This document shows, piece after piece, positions 3,957 to 17,902 of a stretch of DNA of 35,179 bases. Numbering within the stretch: position 1 is the first letter of the stretch; every line of letters starts with the position of its first letter. Made by a program: the position numbers and the translations under genes. Under the pieces are notes generated by a model. It was not told where the DNA came from. It saw nothing but the letters and a program-made list of their open reading frames with translations, and did not search any database. Origin of the DNA: an uncultured Bacteroidia bacterium (GTDB lineage: Bacteria; Bacteroidota; Bacteroidia; Bacteroidales; UBA932); the NCBI GenBank assembly GCA_902780175.1, contig CACZEU010000025.1, positions 1 to 35,179 of the forward strand. The letters are read 5' to 3'.

Positions 3957-6633
3957 TTAGTTCTGGTAGCAGCCGGGCCAGGAGGTGGCGCCGCGATTGT
4001 TGCCATTGATGTCCTTGCCGAGGGCTCCGATGGAGTTCAGCCAGGAGTAGAAGTCGGCGTCGGCGCTCTGGATCTGAGCGTTCACATCGGCGGTGGCAGC
4101 GAGCATATTGCTGTTGGTACCGGTGAGGGTGCCGTTCCAAATCATCGGAGCACTCCAGCCGCCGAAGCTGGCAGAGGTGGCATAATAGTCGTGACCGGAG
4201 CCGGTGTCTTCCGTCCAGTTCGTCCTGTTGTCTCCTTCCTTGGAGATTTTGCTGTACCAGCAATAAACAGGGAGTTTGGGACCGCCGTTTGATATAGTTG
4301 TAGTTCCGTCGACCTTGATGTCTCCGTTAACCCAGAAACTGTTGCCTACCGTATCAAGCGAGCAAAGGATGGTGTTGAGGAAATAGTAATTGCCGGTGTT
4401 CTGGAACTTGATGACACCCCAGTTGTTCTTCCTCAAACCGCCGGCGCTGGGAGCACGATAGTTATCACCTACAATCGTGGTGTTGGCTAGAATGAGGGTG
4501 CTGCTCGCGTTATCCATGCCGATCCAGGAAATATCGTCGGAATTACGTCCGCCATAGTTGTCGTGGAAGGAGCAGTTGTTGAAGGCAAAGGTGCTGCCGG
4601 CCAGGGTGGCGAACACTGTGCCTCTTATACCGCCAAAGACCCCCGTGGAATTACCTGTTCCTGATGTATTCTCCTTGAATTCGCAAGCGTTGAAATAATA
4701 GCTTACGTCACCGATACGGCAGTTGACTATAGCCGCGCAGGGATTATTCGAAGAAGTCTGTTTATTCGAATAGTTCCCATCAAACACGCAGCCGTCGAAG
4801 TGACCGAATTTTCCCGATTGCTGGATACGGATGATGCCACCAGACTGTGTGTTTTCTCCAACAAAATTGTAGTTCTCCTTGAAGAGCACATCTGTACAGC
4901 TGAATGATCCGTAGGAATAAATGGCTGCACCTGCCGCCTTCGTATTGTCGGCACCGTTAGCGTTATTCCCCTGGAACTTGCCGCCGGTAAAGGTAGTATT
5001 GTCATTGGCGTTTTCAATCATGACGGCGCCGCCTCTCTGGTCGCAATCGTTGTCAATGAACTCACAGTCCGTGAAAGTGGTGGTAACATCGGTTCCGTTG
5101 ATACAAATGGCACCGCCCTGGACGGAGGAATGATTCCTGATAAAGTCACAGTCGTCGAAGGTGATGGTTCCGGCACCGGAAATATATGCTGCCGCACCGT
5201 ATTCGCCTGAATCATTATTATCGCTGAACGTTACCCTCGTACATGTGAATGTGTCGAAAGACTGTGCATAAATGGCATTTTTGGTGATATTGCTGGCTTC
5301 GCAGTCCACAATATTCACCTTCGCACTGGCGTGATTGACATGGATGATTCCGCCGGCACCGGTCGCGTTTTTGAATACGCAGTTACTGATATTCACGGTG
5401 GCGCTGTTGAACAGGGAAATGCCGCTGCCGTTTCCGGAAGTCTGGTTGCCATCGAAAATGCAGTGGTCCAGATTCAGTTCCTTGGCACTGTTGTTAACAC
5501 GGATGGCAGACGCATTGGACGCACCATTTGTGCCCGTAAACTTGACGTTCTTGACGGTGATGTATGAGTTATTCTGCGGCCAGAGCACGCCTGCGGTAGT
5601 GCCGGAAGTGGCGGTACGGCCGACGAAGGTGGTCATGCTTGACTCAGAATTGAAGGTGCCTTCCAAGGTGAAAGCGACATTGCCGTGATCCGGGTAATTC
5701 AATACCAGGTAATCGTCGCCAAAGGAGAACTCATCAGCCGAGAAATGGAAGGTGGAGCCCTTAAGGAGGAAGTGGTTGTCCTGGTCGGTTACAAAGGCCT
5801 TGAATTCGGTGACACCCATGGCATTAGACCAGCTTTGTCCAGCCTTTGAGCCGGCACCGGAAGGAGTGACGTAATACTGGCCGGCTTTGTCATCCAGATT
5901 GGTGAGCTTTATGATCTTGCCGCGTTCGGTAGTGAACGAGCCGGCATAGAAGAAAGGAGTGAGCTGTTCTTCACCTCTGAAGTAGCCGATACGGAAACCG
6001 TCGGAAAGGACGACGTCAGGCAAAACGGGAATATAGTAGTTGCCGGGGCCGGAAACTGTCACGCTGACTGTTCCGCCCGTATCAGTTGCTGTGCCAAATA
6101 CAGGGTCACCGCTTCCGTCGAAACTTACAGGGAGATAACCTGAAATGTTTTGAGCCTCAGCGGGTCCACGTCCGCCCATCACCTGGATCTTGGTGATGTC
6201 GCTGGCGGTAACGCCGACCTTGAGCAGGCAGGCTACATTCTTGAAGGCCAGCGTTGTGCTCCAGGTGTCGCCGGTCTTGACGGCCTTGGCCACGCAGATG
6301 TCGTTGGCGGCGAAGGATCCGTCGGTGCGGGAGCCGTTGAAGTGGACCTTTACGTTGCCGCTGTCGTAGCTGCCGCCTGCAGAGGCGGGATACACGGCAT
6401 AAAGCTCAGTGATGCCTTCGCCGACTTCGACGCTGAAGGTGGTGCTGGCACCGGAAGAAGAAGCGGTTGCGTACCTCGTCATTGGAGTCGATGGCGGTCT
6501 TGGTGGGGACGTTGGCTGTGAATACAACCACATTGGAGTCGGCAGGGACAGGCTGTTCCTCGAAATTCTCTTTTTCGCAGGCAACCGAAAGGATTGCCAT
6601 TGCAGTCAATGCAAAAAATATAGTTTTTCTCAT
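3957..6633 (-). pseudogene. Beta-helix surface lipoprotein, reading frame broken near the N terminus
   Basis: The start at 6633 encodes a lipoprotein signal (MRKTIFFALTAMAILSVACEKEN, lipidated Cys at 19) and the beginning of a fimbrillin-like domain ending FTANVPTKTAIDSNDEVR. The frame then runs off into nonsense and stops at 6406. The rest of the gene is in another frame, open from 6584 to 3957, and resumes recognisable sequence at about 6465 with ASSSGASTTFSVEVGEG. It continues with a fimbrillin-like beta-sandwich, then a long right-handed parallel beta-helix with repeated xxNCxFxxN-type coils. It ends GKDINGNNRGATSWPGCYQN, the usual end of choice-of-anchor beta-helix lipoproteins. Read across the break it is about 890 residues, probably a surface glycan-binding or adhesin-like protein. 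It follows two small peptide genes with a 12-nt gap. The break may be a real mutation or a sequencing error. Confidence 0.8.
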
Positions 6634-6645
6634 GATTGGAATGTT

Positions 6646-6783
6646 TTATTCGAACAGGTCAAGGGAATCATAATTCTCGCGGGTCGCGGTTTCGGTCTGC
6701 GAACCCGTGCATAATTGGTCGGTTCGGATGAAGAGGACTTTCACCTCCGGTGCGCTGTAGTGTTTTTTTGTCTGATTATTCAT
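6646..6783 (-). CDS. Small peptide of a Bacteroidales family found before fimbrillin-type lipoproteins (45 aa)
   Basis: ATG at 6783 to TAA at 6646-6648 encodes 45 residues. It begins MNNQTKKHYSAPEVKVLF, then a short hydrophobic centre with DQLCTGS, a Thr/Glu-rich stretch and the acidic end NYDSLDLFE. The pattern basic start, aromatic-x-AP, hydrophobic middle, small/Cys pocket and D-x-F/C-E end is shared with the product of 6796-6948, so the two are paralogues. The gap to the upstream peptide gene and to the downstream lipoprotein start (6633) is 12 nt in each case, arguing for one transcript and a real gene. There is no signal peptide or known domain. Function unknown. Confidence 0.6.
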   Translation of the reverse strand: MNNQTKKHYSAPEVKVLFIRTDQLCTGSQTETATRENYDSLDLFE

Positions 6784-6795
6784 AAAGGAAGATTA

Positions 6796-6948
6796 TTACT
6801 CACAGAGGTCAAAGACTTCATAGTCCTCGAGAGTGGCGTTCCCGTCGTAGGTGACGGCGTCGGATGCCGCAAAGAGGTTCCCGGAGACGGCATATACCAC
6901 CTCCGAGTGCGGTGCGAAATACTTTGAGCGTGATTGATCGTTGTACAT
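6796..6948 (-). CDS. Small peptide, paralogue of the adjacent 45-aa peptide (50 aa)
   Basis: The ATG at 6948 is preferred over the longer frame from 6990 because the product then aligns end to end with its neighbour. It begins MYNDQSRSKYFAPHSEVVYA and ends DYEVFDLCE, against MNNQTKKHYSAPEVKVLF and NYDSLDLFE in the 45-residue peptide. The middle reads SGNLFAASDAVTYDGNATL. It is the first gene of the transcript peptide, peptide, lipoprotein. No clear TAnnTTTG box is visible in the 100 nt upstream. The family is familiar to me as short hypothetical proteins with a Y-x-x-P-E motif in Bacteroidales; no function is established to my knowledge. Confidence 0.6.
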   Translation of the reverse strand: MYNDQSRSKYFAPHSEVVYAVSGNLFAASDAVTYDGNATLEDYEVFDLCE

Positions 6949-7049: not shown

Positions 7050-7586
7050 TTAATCTTCCCCTTCTTCGTAGACGATTTCCTCTTTGTCGTCGTCTTCGTC
7101 GGCGTCGTCGTCTTCGTCATCGTCGTCATCTTCTCCGTCGGGTATTTCTCCGGGGAGGACGCGGCGCTGCTGGGGGAGGTCTTCGAAGGCTACGTAGCCG
7201 TTCTCGAACTCCAGGGGGATGGGGCCTTTGGATTCTTCCAGGGTGGGGCCGGCGACGGTGCCGGGCTCCTCGGCCTCGAGGGTGATGGTGACGCTCTTGC
7301 GGGCGGCGATGTCGTAGAAATAGACGAAACGCACTATGCCGTCCTTGACCGTCTTCTCTATTGATATGGCGTCCACCGTGCCGAAGCCGATGTCGGTAAG
7401 GGCGTAGCGGGCGGCTACGTTGCCGGCGGCGTCGAAGGCCTTGAAGAGGATGGGCTGGTCCACCGTGAACTCCAGGTCGGCCCTGAGCTGCTTGTGAAAC
7501 GTGTATAACGAGTTGTCTCCGCTGATTTTATAGACTCGGAAGAAACCTTTGATGCCGTCGAGGGTGACCCTGTAAGTGTAGACCAT
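7050..7586 (-). CDS. Plasmid pRiA4b ORF-3-like protein with acidic C-terminal tail
   Basis: 178 residues. MVYTYRVTLDGIKGFFRVYKISGDNSLYTFHKQLRADLEFTVD resembles the N terminus of the pRiA4b ORF-3-like family: a beta-rich module beginning M-x-Y-x-F/Y-R-V followed by a helix with L-x-x-x-H/F. The domain ends near residue 110 (VYFYDIAARKSVTITLEAEE). About 20 of the last 27 residues are Asp or Glu, in a run of DDDDDEDDDADEDDD. Such tails are common in soluble proteins that bind basic partners, but no partner is visible here. The molecular function of the family is unknown. It is divergent from yigZ, with 72 nt between the two starts. Family assignment is moderately sure. Confidence 0.6.
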   Translation of the reverse strand: MVYTYRVTLDGIKGFFRVYKISGDNSLYTFHKQLRADLEFTVDQPILFKAFDAAGNVAARYALTDIGFGTVDAISIEKTVKDGIVRFVYFYDIAARKSVTITLEAEEPGTVAGPTLEESKGPIPLEFENGYVAFEDLPQQRRVLPGEIPDGEDDDDDEDDDADEDDDKEEIVYEEGED

Positions 7587-13762: not shown

Positions 13763-14408
13763 CTTATATGTAGCTTCCCATCAATTGTTTCAAATGGATG
13801 AAGGTCTCTTTGAATAGTCCCTTTTCTGTTATACAGGTGGCTACCATCGTTGAGACGTCTATCTTGACAAAAGATAATCTCAGGGGACTGCTTATTCCTG
13901 AATCACTTAGGGAAAACCAAAACGACAAATAACTATGTTTGTTTTACAAAAAAAATAATGCAACGGTGTTTTTTTCGATAATAGTTTGTACATTTGGCTT
14001 GCCATTGAAAGATGGCGCACATATTAGCGAATTGCTCGTCATCGCAAGATGGCAAACATATTTGCGAAAGTGTTTTCGTGTCCTTTGTGGGAAATTCGCA
14101 GTTTCAACGACAGAAGGATTACAATAGCTATTTCCGCTCGTGCTTTGATGATGCAGTTTGCTTCGGTTCTCGGAGCGACACTCCATATCAGGCCGAGTGT
14201 GGAGTGTTATCAGTAGTTTATTTCTGTCAAGGCCCTGCGAAGCCTCCCACAAAATAAGCGAAAGTAGGCTCCACACTTTTGTTTTAAAGTAATGTTGCTC
14301 TGGAGCCTGGCGAAAGAATTTAATCGTTTCATGGGAGAGAATGAGTTCAAAGAAAAGGAAAGCGGAGTAAGTTATAGAGAATTGACTTCTACTGCTGAGC
14401 TATTCCTT
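13763..14408 (+). other. AT-richer non-coding stretch upstream of the island lipoprotein: leader and possible small ORFs
   Basis: I find no recognisable gene here. A TACATTTG box (13989-13996) could start a transcript with a roughly 400-nt leader running to the peptide gene at 14409. Two 21-nt direct repeats (14011-14031 and 14048-14068, 18/21 identical) lie just after it. A hairpin at 14178-14207 competes with an alternative pairing to 14269-14276. Short open frames without known relatives are 13798-13932 (44 codons, MKVSLNSPFSVIQVATIVET...), 14049-14216 (55 codons, MANIFAKVFSCPLWEIRSF...) and the stretch in frame with the peptide gene from 14292. I cannot support any of them as genes. Confidence 0.4.
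13989..13996 (+). promoter_or_regulatory. Possible -7 box for the island peptide-lipoprotein transcript
   Basis: TACATTTG fits TAnnTTTG. A T-rich stretch (13969-13975) stands roughly where the -33 element should be, but TTTG is not exact. If used, the mRNA has a long structured leader before the peptide gene at 14409. Confidence 0.35.
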
Positions 14409-14564
14409 ATGCTCGCTTCTACAAAAAACAAAAGCTATGTCAGCCCGGATTCTTTTTCAATTGAGTCTCTATCAGATTCTTTAATATGCCAGAGCCCAGG
14501 CGCCGGTGGCTCAGAAGGGACTGGTGAGGAAGATTTATTTGGCAATTTGCTATGGAAAGAATAG
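14409..14564 (+). CDS. Small peptide, third member of the Y-x-x-P family (51 aa)
   Basis: The ATG at 14409 gives MLASTKNKSYVSPDSFSIE, then SLSDSLICQSPGAGGSEG and a Gly/Glu-rich end TGEEDLFGNLLWKE. It matches the two peptides at 6646-6948 in layout: basic N terminus, Y-V/F/S-x-P near residue 10, a hydrophobic/Cys centre (LICQS against QLCTGS) and an acidic D-L-F end. A longer reading from 14292 in the same frame is possible, but its first 39 residues have no counterpart in the other two. The stop codon is 2 nt before the lipoprotein start at 14567, so translation is probably coupled. Function unknown. Confidence 0.55.
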   Translation: MLASTKNKSYVSPDSFSIESLSDSLICQSPGAGGSEGTGEEDLFGNLLWKE

Positions 14565-14566
14565 GT

Positions 14567-17500
14567 ATGAAAAGAATAGTGTTGTCAATATGCGCGCTTG
14601 CAATGGCTGCTTGCTCGCAAATGCTTGAAGTAGACGAAGTTAATATTTCATCTGGCAAAGAAATTACCTTTACAGCCACGGTGGAGAGCCGTTGTTGCGA
14701 AACAAAAACCGAAAGACAGGAAGATGGGGCAGTATGGTGGAAACCGGGAGATGCGGTGAGTCTGTTTTTTGTTAAAGGCGAAAAGGGGGGTAGTATGTTC
14801 ATTGCTCAGAATAAGACTGTTTCTGAATTGGCGGAATTCAAAGGAACTATTGACAGTTTTGCCGGTAGTCCTGAAAGTTCCGGCGGTGAGTTCTGGTTCT
14901 GGAGTGTATATCCCTATTCCGAAGACAACAGCTGTGACGGGGAATCTGTTACAATTAAGCTGCCGGCTGTTCAGAAAGCGGTTGCAGGAACATTTGCGGA
15001 CAATACCTTTCCGACGCTTGCCCGTGCTAAAGGTCTTGAGTTGCCTTTTTATAATGTTTGTGGTGGTGCCAAGTTGATTTTGTCCCGGGACGATATAGTA
15101 TCTGTGTCAATAAAAGGCAATAATGGAGAAATGCTTTCCGGTACTGCCAGGGTTGTGTTCCCTGAAGGTTCTTATCCAAGCATAGAAAGACTAACCGGAG
15201 GAGCAACCGAAATAACTCTTAAAGCTACCGAAGGGACAACGTTTGAATCAGGGAAGGATTATTATTTAGTTATTCCCCCCGTTCAGTTTTCTTCCGGTTT
15301 TACTCTGACGTTCAGGACATCAGGTGACAAAGAAGGAACTTATGTTTTCCCAAACACTTATACGGTCAAGCGCTCTACGTTTGTCAGATTACCTAATCTG
15401 GACGCCAGAGTAGAAACATGGGAAACGGTAGAAGATCCCGTTACGCCGGTCCCTGTTACACCGGATCCCATTAATGGAGAGGAGAGTGGATTGTACTTCG
15501 GATTATCTACTTTCGACAGGTTATATCAATATTATCCTGTACGGTTTATGTCTGAAGAGACTCTGGAGGCTTATAACTCGATAGTTAATGATATGCAGTT
15601 GACTGAGTTGAATGGAACGTTGCTATACTATTCATGTGATGAGGATATTACTGCAATGCAGAGCCTTTCACTCCCGTCGGATTTAACGAATGTGTCGTTG
15701 ATTACTTTTACTGATGGATTAGATCAAGGTTCGATTAACAAGCATCTAGATTTGTACACCACGAGGGATGCATATTTGGATGCAGTGCATAATAGACTTG
15801 CAACTGAAACAGTTTCGGGCTTTCCCATCAAGTCGTATGCCATTGGGTTAATGGGTCCTGATGCCCAATCAAACATTACGGAATTCAGGAAGAATCTCAA
15901 CAAGATTGCATCTACCCCTGTTTCATCTTCAGATAAATACGTATATGAAATAGACAACAACCAGTTCTCTGCGCTCAGCGCTGTTTTTTCAAGTATAGCC
16001 AAAGAACTGTCCGAAAGAATCAAAGTCCAGAGCATTCATGTTCATTTCTCTCTGCCGGATGATGGAGAGAGAATCAGACTCACACTTGATGCTCTGAACC
16101 CTAAGACACAAACGGCAGATGCGTCGAGCCTCTATATTGAAGGCGTATTTGACCTGAGCAATTGGTCATTGCGCGATATTACTTATCGCGGATTCAGTGT
16201 TGGGGCTGGAGATAATGTACATATCAGTGATTATGATGGATTCGAGGTCTTTTTTGATTTTGACGGTTTACAGACCGCTACCGGTGCAGAAATCAATGAA
16301 GATAACATTCTGCAGTGGTCGTATACATCGTCCAATTCCTGGCAATGGAATAGCGAATTTACTCCTAAGCAGGGTGCGTCTGTCAAGGTCAAACTGAGTT
16401 CTGCGCTGGTGGTTCTTAATCTTGACTTGTCCAAGTCTCTTGAGGGTAAATTGACGGATCTTAAGAAGTATGTCAAAGAGTTCATTACTACTTTGTATTC
16501 CTCCAGTGTGGATCCAAACGTTGTAAAGTCAATCAAACTGGACAATGATGACATTACCATTTCAGTTGGCCACAAAAAGACTCTGGTGGCTACGGTTTCA
16601 CCATCGACGGCTTCATCGTCAACACTTAAATGGACCTCCAGCCTTCCTTCTGTCGCTACGGTTGATTCCAAAGGTGTTGTCACCGGCATGTCAGAAGGTG
16701 TTACTTATATAACGGCTTCAACCGAGGATGGAAAACAAACAGCAACATGTAAGGTAAGCGTTGAGTACATTGAACCGGGGGCGTTAATCTTGGATGAGAC
16801 GTCGATTTCTTTGTATAAGGGTGCTACATATAAGCTGACAGCTACCTTTCTTCCTGAAAAGGCTTCGATTAGCCCTGTTTCATGGTCAAGTTCTGAGCCG
16901 ATGGTCGCGACCATATCTGACGAAGGTCTGCTGTCGGCAGTCGGCGTGGGAGTGGCGACTATAGAAGCCTCTTTATCAAACGGCATTAAGTCGTCTTGTA
17001 TTGTTATGGTCTTGGATAGTCCTTTCTCTTCCGTTCCGATTGATTTGTCCCTGTCGATTTCTCTGCCATCGGGAGCGCGTTTCTTTGTGACTGCTGAGCA
17101 GTATAAAACTGCCGACCTAAGTGCTTTTATTATTGAAGGTTTATATGTCAAGTCTGCGCAGGGAGACTTTATTATTTCTTTGGGAAATGCGACAACTAAC
17201 ACTGTCAGTTACTCAGCTGCAAGCGCGTTCTTCGACTTGCCCAATAAGGAACAGGGGATAACTATCAGTTCGAGATATACTGACATTAACGCAGCTTTGA
17301 TGTCTTTTGGCGGTGTAAGCTTAAGCGGTACTTATTGGACCAGTGCCATCCAAACTTCTTCATACTATTATGTTATAAACGGTAGCGGAGGAAGCTTGGG
17401 CAATCTCCATTATTCGGATTATGCACGAGTTAGAGAGGTGGTTTCGGTAGCTAATTTGTCAGGTAGTCCTTGGCAGTGCATGTTGCCGGAACGAGGATTG

Positions 17501-17902
17501 TCGCTTGCCATAAGTGACGGTGTCAACAGACAATTTGTCAATTCATTGCAGGAGATTCCTTCGGGGTATTATGTGGAAGGTTTGGCCATCGAAAATAAAG
17601 GTTGTCATTTTATTCTGGCCATGAAAGACTCTTCATCTGATACGATGACTTATTCAGCAGCGTCTGCTAATTATCCCGGAAAACTCCCGAATGAATTACA
17701 GGCATTATTGATAAGTGCTCGTTTTTCTGAGATAAATACTTCTTTGACGTCCTTTGGCGGTGCACGCTTAAGCGGCACTTATTGGACCAGCGCCATCCAA
17801 ACTTCTTCATACTATTATGTTATAAACGGTAGTGGAGGAAGTTTGGGCAATGTCCATTATTCGAATTATGCACGAGTTAGAGAAGTGATTGACACGTTTT
17901 GA
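14567..17902 (+). CDS. Large multidomain surface lipoprotein: fimbrillin-like, vWA-like, two Big_2, twin C-terminal modules
   Basis: 1,111 residues from the ATG at 14567, chosen over 14552 because it yields the lipoprotein signal MKRIVLSICALAMAACSQ (lipidated Cys at 16). Domains in order: a fimbrillin-like domain (about 25-280) with TKTERQEDGAVWWKPGDAVS; a von Willebrand A-like domain (about 305-485) with LITFTDGLDQGS and SYAIGL; a beta-sandwich stretch to about 645; two Big_2 immunoglobulin-like domains (about 655-738 and 742-820); and two tandem 149-residue modules ending SGTYWTSAIQTSSYYYVIN...ARVREV, which recall the DUF1566/FISUMP C-type-lectin-like fold. The last 45 codons of each module are 93% identical at DNA level. 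It probably acts as an adhesin or ligand-binding protein on the cell surface. Base composition is clearly lower in GC than its flanks, suggesting transfer. Confidence 0.8.
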   Translation: MKRIVLSICALAMAACSQMLEVDEVNISSGKEITFTATVESRCCETKTERQEDGAVWWKPGDAVSLFFVKGEKGGSMFIAQNKTVSELAEFKGTIDSFAGSPESSGGEFWFWSVYPYSEDNSCDGESVTIKLPAVQKAVAGTFADNTFPTLARAKGLELPFYNVCGGAKLILSRDDIVSVSIKGNNGEMLSGTARVVFPEGSYPSIERLTGGATEITLKATEGTTFESGKDYYLVIPPVQFSSGFTLTFRTSGDKEGTYVFPNTYTVKRSTFVRLPNLDARVETWETVEDPVTPVPVTPDPINGEESGLYFGLSTFDRLYQYYPVRFMSEETLEAYNSIVNDMQLTELNGTLLYYSCDEDITAMQSLSLPSDLTNVSLITFTDGLDQGSINKHLDLYTTRDAYLDAVHNRLATETVSGFPIKSYAIGLMGPDAQSNITEFRKNLNKIASTPVSSSDKYVYEIDNNQFSALSAVFSSIAKELSERIKVQSIHVHFSLPDDGERIRLTLDALNPKTQTADASSLYIEGVFDLSNWSLRDITYRGFSVGAGDNVHISDYDGFEVFFDFDGLQTATGAEINEDNILQWSYTSSNSWQWNSEFTPKQGASVKVKLSSALVVLNLDLSKSLEGKLTDLKKYVKEFITTLYSSSVDPNVVKSIKLDNDDITISVGHKKTLVATVSPSTASSSTLKWTSSLPSVATVDSKGVVTGMSEGVTYITASTEDGKQTATCKVSVEYIEPGALILDETSISLYKGATYKLTATFLPEKASISPVSWSSSEPMVATISDEGLLSAVGVGVATIEASLSNGIKSSCIVMVLDSPFSSVPIDLSLSISLPSGARFFVTAEQYKTADLSAFIIEGLYVKSAQGDFIISLGNATTNTVSYSAASAFFDLPNKEQGITISSRYTDINAALMSFGGVSLSGTYWTSAIQTSSYYYVINGSGGSLGNLHYSDYARVREVVSVANLSGSPWQCMLPERGLSLAISDGVNRQFVNSLQEIPSGYYVEGLAIENKGCHFILAMKDSSSDTMTYSAASANYPGKLPNELQALLISARFSEINTSLTSFGGARLSGTYWTSAIQTSSYYYVINGSGGSLGNVHYSNYARVREVIDTF

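What the first reader, a model, noticed from the sequence alone, without database searches (positions are those of the whole stretch)
6646..6948. Tandem genes for a short-peptide family in front of a surface lipoprotein
Two adjacent minus-strand ORFs of 50 and 45 codons encode products that align over their whole length: basic start, aromatic-x-A-P near residue 10, hydrophobic centre, acidic D-x-F/L-x-E end. They are spaced 12 nt apart and 12 nt before the beta-helix lipoprotein. Duplication with preserved pattern but diverged sequence implies selection on the peptide. They could be chaperone-like partners, secreted signals or export tags for the lipoprotein. I know of no described function.
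Basis: partly seen in the sequence, partly recalled or inferred. Interest (0 to 1): 0.7.

Follow-up and report, generated by a model that had tools for sequence, protein, structure and literature searches.

The report
Tiny partner genes for pilin-like lipoproteins
The two short genes are real and belong to an unnamed family of about 45-residue proteins, one of which sits directly in front of most pilin-like surface lipoprotein genes of this bacterium, about 45 copies in one genome, possibly as a dedicated helper for a kind of pilus that has no known helper.

Summary
They are homologous (z 8.8), four other same-genus genomes carry the pair, and dN/dS is 0.19 and 0.35.

The pair is a small part of something larger. 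None of 19 family members scanned has a Pfam or NCBIfam match: Y-x-x-P, 15-16 residues, S (often C-x-S), acidic tail with aromatic end. In this genome 42 of 64 strong copies of a fimbrillin-like lipoprotein N-domain have one directly upstream (27 of the 49 not first found through a peptide), against 1 of 263 other genes sampled. In other genomes 46 of 51 such peptides lead into a lipoprotein. Many sit inside operons, some as repeated [peptide-lipoprotein] units, so they are not simply 5' leaders.

Best explanation (0.4): a cytoplasmic partner made just before its lipoprotein, whose tail serves that lipoprotein's pilin-like domain. Chief rival (0.3): a reinitiation leader ORF; spacing (mode 12-13 nt) favours it, amino-acid conservation does not. 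RiPP export through C39 or lasso-B2 proteases is not supported. Function is inferred.

The parts
6796..6948 (-). peptide gene A, 50 aa, first of the tandem pair
   Evidence: ORF; orthologs in 4 other same-genus genomes, dN/dS 0.19 against G004; A1 profile E 3.1e-14 in own genome (the peptide is itself a row of A1)
6646..6783 (-). peptide gene B, 45 aa, second of the tandem pair, 12 nt before the lipoprotein
   Evidence: ORF; orthologs in 4 other tandem genomes plus single-copy loci in G121, G033/G224 and G039; dN/dS 0.35 against G004
3957..6633 (-). surface lipoprotein: SPII signal (ATG 6633), fimbrillin-like N-domain, right-handed beta-helix; read in two frames (6406-6633 and 3957-6584)
   Evidence: PF13229 Beta_helix E 8e-14; relatives; N-domain profile matches C25:5961-6470 and 6475-6633
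14409..14564 (+). third peptide of the same family, 51 aa (ATG choice uncertain; the longest ORF starts at 14292)
14567..17902 (+). its lipoprotein, 1111 aa, SPII signal and fimbrillin-like N-domain
   Evidence: (N-domain profile E 1.8e-62; it is a row of that profile)
7050..7586 (-). syntenic neighbour upstream of the pair (weak PRiA4_ORF3 match, below cut-off; acidic tail); boundary marker, not part of the cassette

Best explanation
Shown: the two ORFs are genes of a conserved family of about 40-55 aa proteins (Y-x-x-P, 15-16 residues to an S that is often C-x-S, acidic tail with aromatic end) that forms a two-gene cassette with a downstream surface lipoprotein carrying a fimbrillin-like (type V pilin-like) N-domain. 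The cassette occurs about 44 times in this genome. Inferred: the peptide is a dedicated cytoplasmic partner (escort) of its own lipoprotein precursor. It is made immediately before the lipoprotein, with the 12-13 nt spacing coupling the two. Its common YxxP...S half would contact a shared factor, and its acidic-aromatic tail would serve the cognate N-domain, keeping it export-competent or timing its assembly.
For: In other genomes, of 51 peptides not found by way of a lipoprotein, 42 directly precede a lipoprotein and 4 are first-of-tandem copies; 25 of 28 loci in ruminant Bacteroidales MAGs; 9 of 11 peptides shown from two genomes of another order in the class. The peptide stays with its lipoprotein inside operons: for 19 of 41 a long same-strand ORF ends -10 to 40 nt before the peptide, in several cases another such lipoprotein (crude ORF calls). 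Amino-acid selection: dN/dS 0.19 and 0.35; at this locus the tail is the more constrained half (pooled pN/pS tail 0.21 and 0.41, leader 0.80 and 0.68). 45 of 45 own-genome tails are net negative and 44 of 45 have an aromatic in the last six residues. Tail, not leader, covaries with the lipoprotein N-domain among 41 own-genome pairs (rho 0.25, p 0.001; double-centred 0.175, p 0.0005, middle region 0.10, p 0.002, C-terminus 0.05, p 0.09); 45 pairs from other genomes give rho 0.19, p 0.001.
Against: No physical or functional evidence. Alignment of peptide to its own lipoprotein N-domain is no better than to others (p 0.14). The covariation weakens to rho 0.08, p 0.08 in the second set once the closest 10% of lipoprotein pairs are left out, and its fall from N- to C-terminus is also what genetic linkage would give. 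22 of 64 strong N-domain genes have no real peptide call (16 of these have a long gene ending within 100 nt, 6 do not). AlphaFold gives pepB no fold (pLDDT 64.6, pTM 0.16). Spacing equally suits the leader-ORF rival. Outside the genus few genomes match.
Confidence: 0.4

Rival explanations
1. Translational leader ORF: its translation delivers ribosomes to the lipoprotein start by reinitiation. The peptide itself is a by-product, or acts only as a nascent chain in cis.
For: 45 of 73 peptide-to-lipoprotein gaps are 10-20 nt (30 are 11-14), against 12 of the 77 generic co-directional gene pairs with gaps of -30 to 60 in twenty stretches of this genome, which peak at -4 (Fisher p 5e-9; generic starts are crude calls). 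PMC4833913 (abstract and Results section read) reports a leader-gene distance peak of 11-14 bp in Bacteroidetes and proposes reinitiation.
Against: Y and P invariant in the 77 aligned members (partly by selection), orthologous amino-acid constraint and tail covariation are not expected of a by-product. 19 of 41 peptides seem to lie inside operons, where ribosomes already arrive.
Confidence: 0.3
2. Leader-core precursor of an exported (perhaps modified) peptide: the YxxP half is recognised by a common machine, cut after C-x-S, and the tail is released and acts with or on the surface lipoprotein.
For: In the rumen subfamily the first half is nearly invariant and everything after S-G is hypervariable. 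YxxP also marks lasso leaders that bind RRE domains (recalled; the term was seen only in the listing).
Against: C39 peptidase is found in 2 of 25 same-genus genomes and lasso B2 protease in 1 of 25, neither in G000. At the window locus the tail, not the leader, is the constrained half. Neighbours were read as ORF maps only and not scanned for modification enzymes; RRE/PqqD was not searched.
Confidence: 0.12
3. Antagonist or stoichiometric regulator: the peptide restrains its lipoprotein (premature folding, polymerisation) or reports its synthesis to a regulator.
For: Pairing, locus-specific tail and acidic-aromatic ends would suit an inhibitor as well as an escort.
Against: No second component is known (none was searched for); the cellular compartment is unknown.
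Confidence: 0.13
4. Chance or decaying ORFs.
For: Short length; no database family for those scanned.
Against: Conservation in frame, copy number and pairing.
Confidence: 0.01

Closest known systems
Leader genes spaced for ribosome reinitiation (PMC4833913)
   Same: Short gene a few nucleotides before a structural gene; the 11-14 bp peak given for Bacteroidetes matches the 12-13 nt mode here
   Different: The Results section finds a variety of downstream domains and no reason to name one type; here one protein family precedes one family of lipoproteins, with conserved amino acids
Type V pilins of Bacteroidota (FimA/Mfa superfamily; PF13149 Mfa_like_1; PDB 3sy6 BF1861), for the downstream gene
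   Same: SPII lipoprotein precursors; N-domain profile matches 3sy6 (E 5e-4); variable C-terminal domains as described for tip pilins (PMC12632263 section 14)
   Different: 11 places in this genome match Mfa_like_1 at E<=0.01, 5 over its cut-off, against 80 at E<=0.001 for the profile built here; pilus formation not shown; the passages read of PMC5789003 and PMC12632263 mention no peptide partner
Lasso-type RiPP precursors with YxxP leaders
   Same: YxxP motif (recalled for lasso leaders), conserved first half and variable tail in one subfamily
   Different: No B2 protease found in 24 of 25 same-genus genomes, acidic tail
Dedicated secretion or pilus chaperones encoded next to their substrate (recalled as a kind)
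   Same: One small partner gene per substrate gene
   Different: Here 40-55 aa, without predicted fold or signal peptide; binding not shown

Membership tests
Any Pfam or NCBIfam family (peptides) | profile match over the curated cut-off | tested here: not met
   Peptides A and B: none at E<=1; the 19 members of A1: two stray Pfam hits (E 0.12, 0.26) and one NCBIfam hit (E 0.05), each in one member. The other members were not scanned
Type V pilin (downstream lipoproteins) | signal peptidase II lipobox | tested here: met
   73 of 82 peptides are followed by a protein with an SPII-like signal by a pattern written here
Type V pilin (downstream lipoproteins) | sequence relation to FimA/Mfa pilins | tested here: met
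   A3 vs PDB: 3sy6_A Fimbrial protein BF1861, E 5e-4; Mfa_like_1 matches 11 places in G000, 5 over cut-off; none of the ten lipoproteins scanned matched it at E<=0.1
Type V pilin (downstream lipoproteins) | pilin fold | tested here: inconclusive
   AlphaFold model of the N-domain failed, pLDDT 38; no fold search was run
Type V pilin (downstream lipoproteins) | clostripain/Rgp cleavage site and polymerisation | not tested
   cleavage described in PMC5789003 and PMC12632263 (passages); not examined here
Reinitiation leader gene | stop-to-start distance near the phylum's peak (11-14 bp) | tested here: met
   30 of 73 gaps are 11-14 nt, 45 of 73 are 10-20 nt
Reinitiation leader gene | peptide sequence irrelevant | tested here: not met
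   dN/dS 0.19 and 0.35; Y and P invariant in 77 sequences (membership was partly selected by profile, and the patterns demand Y/F and P)
Lasso or PCAT RiPP precursor | leader protease (lasso B2 or C39) in the genome | tested here: not met
   PF13471 in 1 of 25 and PF03412 in 2 of 25 same-genus genomes including G000, which has neither; G000 is 85.5% complete
Lasso RiPP precursor | YxxP leader motif | tested here: met
   that lasso leaders carry it is recalled
Sec-exported peptide | hydrophobic signal core | tested here: not met
   median best 9-mer hydropathy 1.45 (82 peptides) vs 2.7 (73 lipoprotein signals); 14 of 82 reach the lowest signal, 6 of 82 the 5th percentile
Escort/chaperone | binds its cognate substrate | not testable with these tools
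   no complex prediction or binding assay available

The most novel reading that the evidence does not exclude
A cassette-encoded class of micro-chaperones for type V pilus-like lipoproteins: each of dozens of adhesin-like surface lipoproteins per genome comes with its own tiny cytoplasmic escort, with a shared recognition half and a substrate-specific acidic tail. This would be the helper that type V fimbriae were thought to lack.
Probability: 0.25. Interest if true: 0.88.

Novelty: new variant of a known kind. Interest (0 to 1): 0.7.

Why it matters
PMC5789003 (passages read) calls it an enigma that no chaperone- or usher-like helper has been found for P. gingivalis fimbrial assembly and judges that there probably is none. 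A conserved small gene paired with pilin-like lipoproteins tens of times in one genome is a direct, testable candidate; if it proves a leader ORF instead, it shows how a whole lipoprotein repertoire is translated. Either way a large family of genes under 60 codons, unmatched in the two protein-family libraries searched, can now be found by its place and motif.

Tried and rejected
Databases: Pfam and NCBIfam on 19 members, PDB by the 77-row profile and plasmids by tblastn with one subfamily peptide gave nothing useful. PHROGs and PADLOC were not searched.

RiPP route: C39 and lasso B2 searches argue against it; PqqD/RRE was not searched.

Structure: pepB is extended with one short helix, pLDDT 64.6; the N-domain model failed, so no fold search was run.

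Cognate alignment of peptide to its own lipoprotein: not significant.

Promoter scan: no sigma-70-type site between 6580 and 7100; the tool does not cover other promoter types.

Literature: ten searches listed no paper whose title or shown abstract start describes this family; most listed papers were not opened, no preprints are held and most subscription papers are missing, so absence from print is not established. Papers opened: PMC10352776 (abstract and outline), PMC4833913 (abstract, Results), PMC5789003 (passages), PMC12632263 (passages, section 14).

Limits: outside the genus the profiles find few genomes: 12 of 295 of the order at E<=0.01, including own and one same-genus; 6 of 392 of the phylum, including own. 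The genus count (183 of 200) is at E<=1 with a profile containing members from some of those genomes. The lipoprotein profile A3 was built from genes that follow peptides, 12 of its 39 rows from this genome; hence the 27-of-49 figure. Seven of 80 N-domain matches were dropped as split or partial before the 73-gene count, and three peptide calls were judged false by eye. In the count for other genomes 13 peptides of the 82 were left out because they were first seen beside a lipoprotein fetched. Lipoprotein and gene starts come from simple scripts.

Full report
WHAT IS THERE. The ORFs at 6796-6948 and 6646-6783 (minus) are as described, with 12-nt gaps to each other and to the lipoprotein ATG at 6633. 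They are homologous (z 8.8, 5000 shuffles). The window is bases 1-35179 of contig C25 of a 2.5-Mb draft genome, 85.5% complete. I think the genus is Cryptobacteroides, from its very large number of species; that is recalled, no call names it.

SAME LOCUS IN RELATIVES. G004 has both peptides, the same 178-aa neighbour upstream and the same lipoprotein downstream. NG86 dN/dS for G000 against G004 is 0.19 (A) and 0.35 (B), neighbour 0.12; bootstrap 95% of pN/pS 0.18-0.56 and 0.33-0.84. The pair is also in G124, G199 and G192, before lipoproteins with a like N-terminus; one copy was detected at the G121, G033/G224 and G039 loci. A-copies and B-copies align as separate sets, so the duplication is older than these species. 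Pooled over all pairs of sequences, the acidic tail is more constrained (pN/pS 0.21 A, 0.41 B) than the first half (0.80, 0.68); many pairs are saturated at synonymous sites and pairs are not independent.

A LARGE FAMILY. A profile of 19 members (A1) matched 183 of 200 same-genus genomes at E<=1, up to 25 places per genome, and 19 places in G000 at E<=10. 82 distinct peptides were read from the loci. For 73 of 82 the next gene, at -4 to 37 nt (one at 143), is a lipoprotein with an SPII-like signal. Split to remove bias: 18 are from G000 (17 directly before a lipoprotein, the other is peptide A); 13 had first been seen beside a lipoprotein fetched and are left out; of the remaining 51 from other genomes 42 are directly followed by a lipoprotein, 4 are first-of-tandem copies with a second peptide between (L067, L072, L079, L083), and 5 are not followed by one (L017, L018, L110, L113, L117; L018 precedes a protein with a plain signal peptide at 13 nt).

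THE REVERSE TEST. A profile of the first 265 aa of 39 of these lipoproteins (A3) matched 80 places in G000 at E<=0.001. Seven were dropped as split or partial; 73 genes were examined upstream. Of 64 with E<=1e-10, 45 were flagged with a YxxP peptide; three I judged false (C77:5330, C3:28868, C120:1823, in-frame ends of longer genes), leaving 42. Of 9 weaker ones, 2. Because 15 of the 42 had been found through their peptide in the first place, the fair figure is 27 of 49. Of the 22 strong genes without a real peptide, 16 have a long gene ending within 100 nt upstream and 6 do not. With the second tandem copy in the window this genome holds about 45 such peptides.

NOT MERELY 5' LEADERS. For 19 of 41 own-genome peptides a long same-strand ORF ends -10 to 40 nt before the peptide ATG; some are lipoproteins of the same kind, giving repeated [peptide-lipoprotein] units, as on C16. 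The ORF calls are crude and a few of these 19 may be spurious.

OTHER LINEAGES. A search of GTDB contigs with a subfamily from the order search (A4) gave 28 loci in six MAGs titled Bacteroidales, five of them from goat, sheep or other rumen/abomasum samples by their titles and one from red deer; 25 of 28 are followed by a lipoprotein. Two genomes of another order in the class (G499, G839) show 11 distinct peptides in the script output, 9 followed by a lipoprotein. Outside the genus the profiles find few genomes (12 of 295 including own and one same-genus; 6 of 392 including own), so either the family is patchy or the profiles are too narrow.

ANATOMY. In 45 own-genome peptides: 15-16 residues between P and S in 38; Cys two before S in 20; every tail net negative (mean -4.9); aromatic in the last six residues in 44; Trp in the tail in 32. 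In the rumen subfamily the first half is nearly invariant and the tail after S-G hypervariable (about 2-3.5 bits per column), so tails differ between loci, while at the window locus they are conserved between orthologs. Most lack a Sec-like core; pepB has no predicted fold.

THE LIPOPROTEINS. The N-domain profile matches Fimbrial protein BF1861 (3sy6_A, E 5e-4); Mfa_like_1 matches 11 places in G000, 5 over its cut-off, but none of ten peptide-linked lipoproteins scanned at E<=0.1. Six of those ten have another domain over its cut-off: tyrosine phosphatase, endo/exonuclease, beta-helix, DUF285 (with a sub-threshold BspA LRR match), BACON, Ig/fn3. [quoted passage not shown] That these proteins form pili is not shown.

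MECHANISM. Two readings fit best. (1) Escort: tail under selection, tail but not leader covarying with the lipoprotein N-domain, one peptide per lipoprotein even inside operons. (2) Reinitiation leader: 45 of 73 gaps of 10-20 nt against 12 of 77 close generic pairs, matching the 11-14 bp peak that PMC4833913 reports for Bacteroidetes. They are not exclusive: coupling would deliver the partner just before its substrate. I commit to the escort reading at 0.4. Against it: no binding evidence, a null cognate-alignment test, covariation that fades without the closest pairs in the second data set and that linkage alone might produce. Leader-core export is disfavoured by the rarity of C39 and lasso-B2 proteases (2 of 25 and 1 of 25 same-genus genomes, none in G000).

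NOVELTY. No Pfam or NCBIfam match for the 19 members scanned beyond three stray sub-threshold hits; ten paper searches listed nothing describing it in titles or shown abstract starts, with the limits given under Tried and rejected. PMC5789003 (passages read) says no chaperone- or usher-like helpers are known for P. gingivalis fimbriae and that they are probably not present. Because both leading mechanisms are known kinds, I rate it a new variant; the micro-chaperone reading would be categorically new.

Noticed in passing
window 6406-6633 and 3957-6584 (-): The beta-helix lipoprotein reads in two frames that change near 6470; the G004 relative has one open frame of 871 codons. Assembly error or real break, not decided.
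   Followed up: partly
window 7050-7586 (-): 178-aa protein with a sub-threshold PRiA4_ORF3 match and a long Asp/Glu-rich tail, strongly conserved with G004 (dN/dS 0.12).
   Followed up: partly
G000 genome: 73 genes matching one shared fimbrillin-like lipoprotein N-domain profile (64 strongly), with very different C-terminal domains, in a 2.5-Mb genome; 11 places match Mfa_like_1.
   Followed up: partly
L214, L226, L242, L244, L254, L255 (contigs C51, C50, C77, C120, C3 of G000): Genes just upstream of several of these lipoproteins end in a DH[YLF]P-type motif followed by a few hydrophobic residues.
   Followed up: no
L018 1450-1575 (-): Family peptide 13 nt before a secreted protein with a plain (non-lipoprotein) signal peptide, an exception to the rule.
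   Followed up: no
L186-L205 (G499, G839): Genomes of another order in the class carry peptides, often with an E-x-x-I-A-x-x-S core and an acidic-W tail, before lipoproteins, suggesting a class-wide family.
   Followed up: partly
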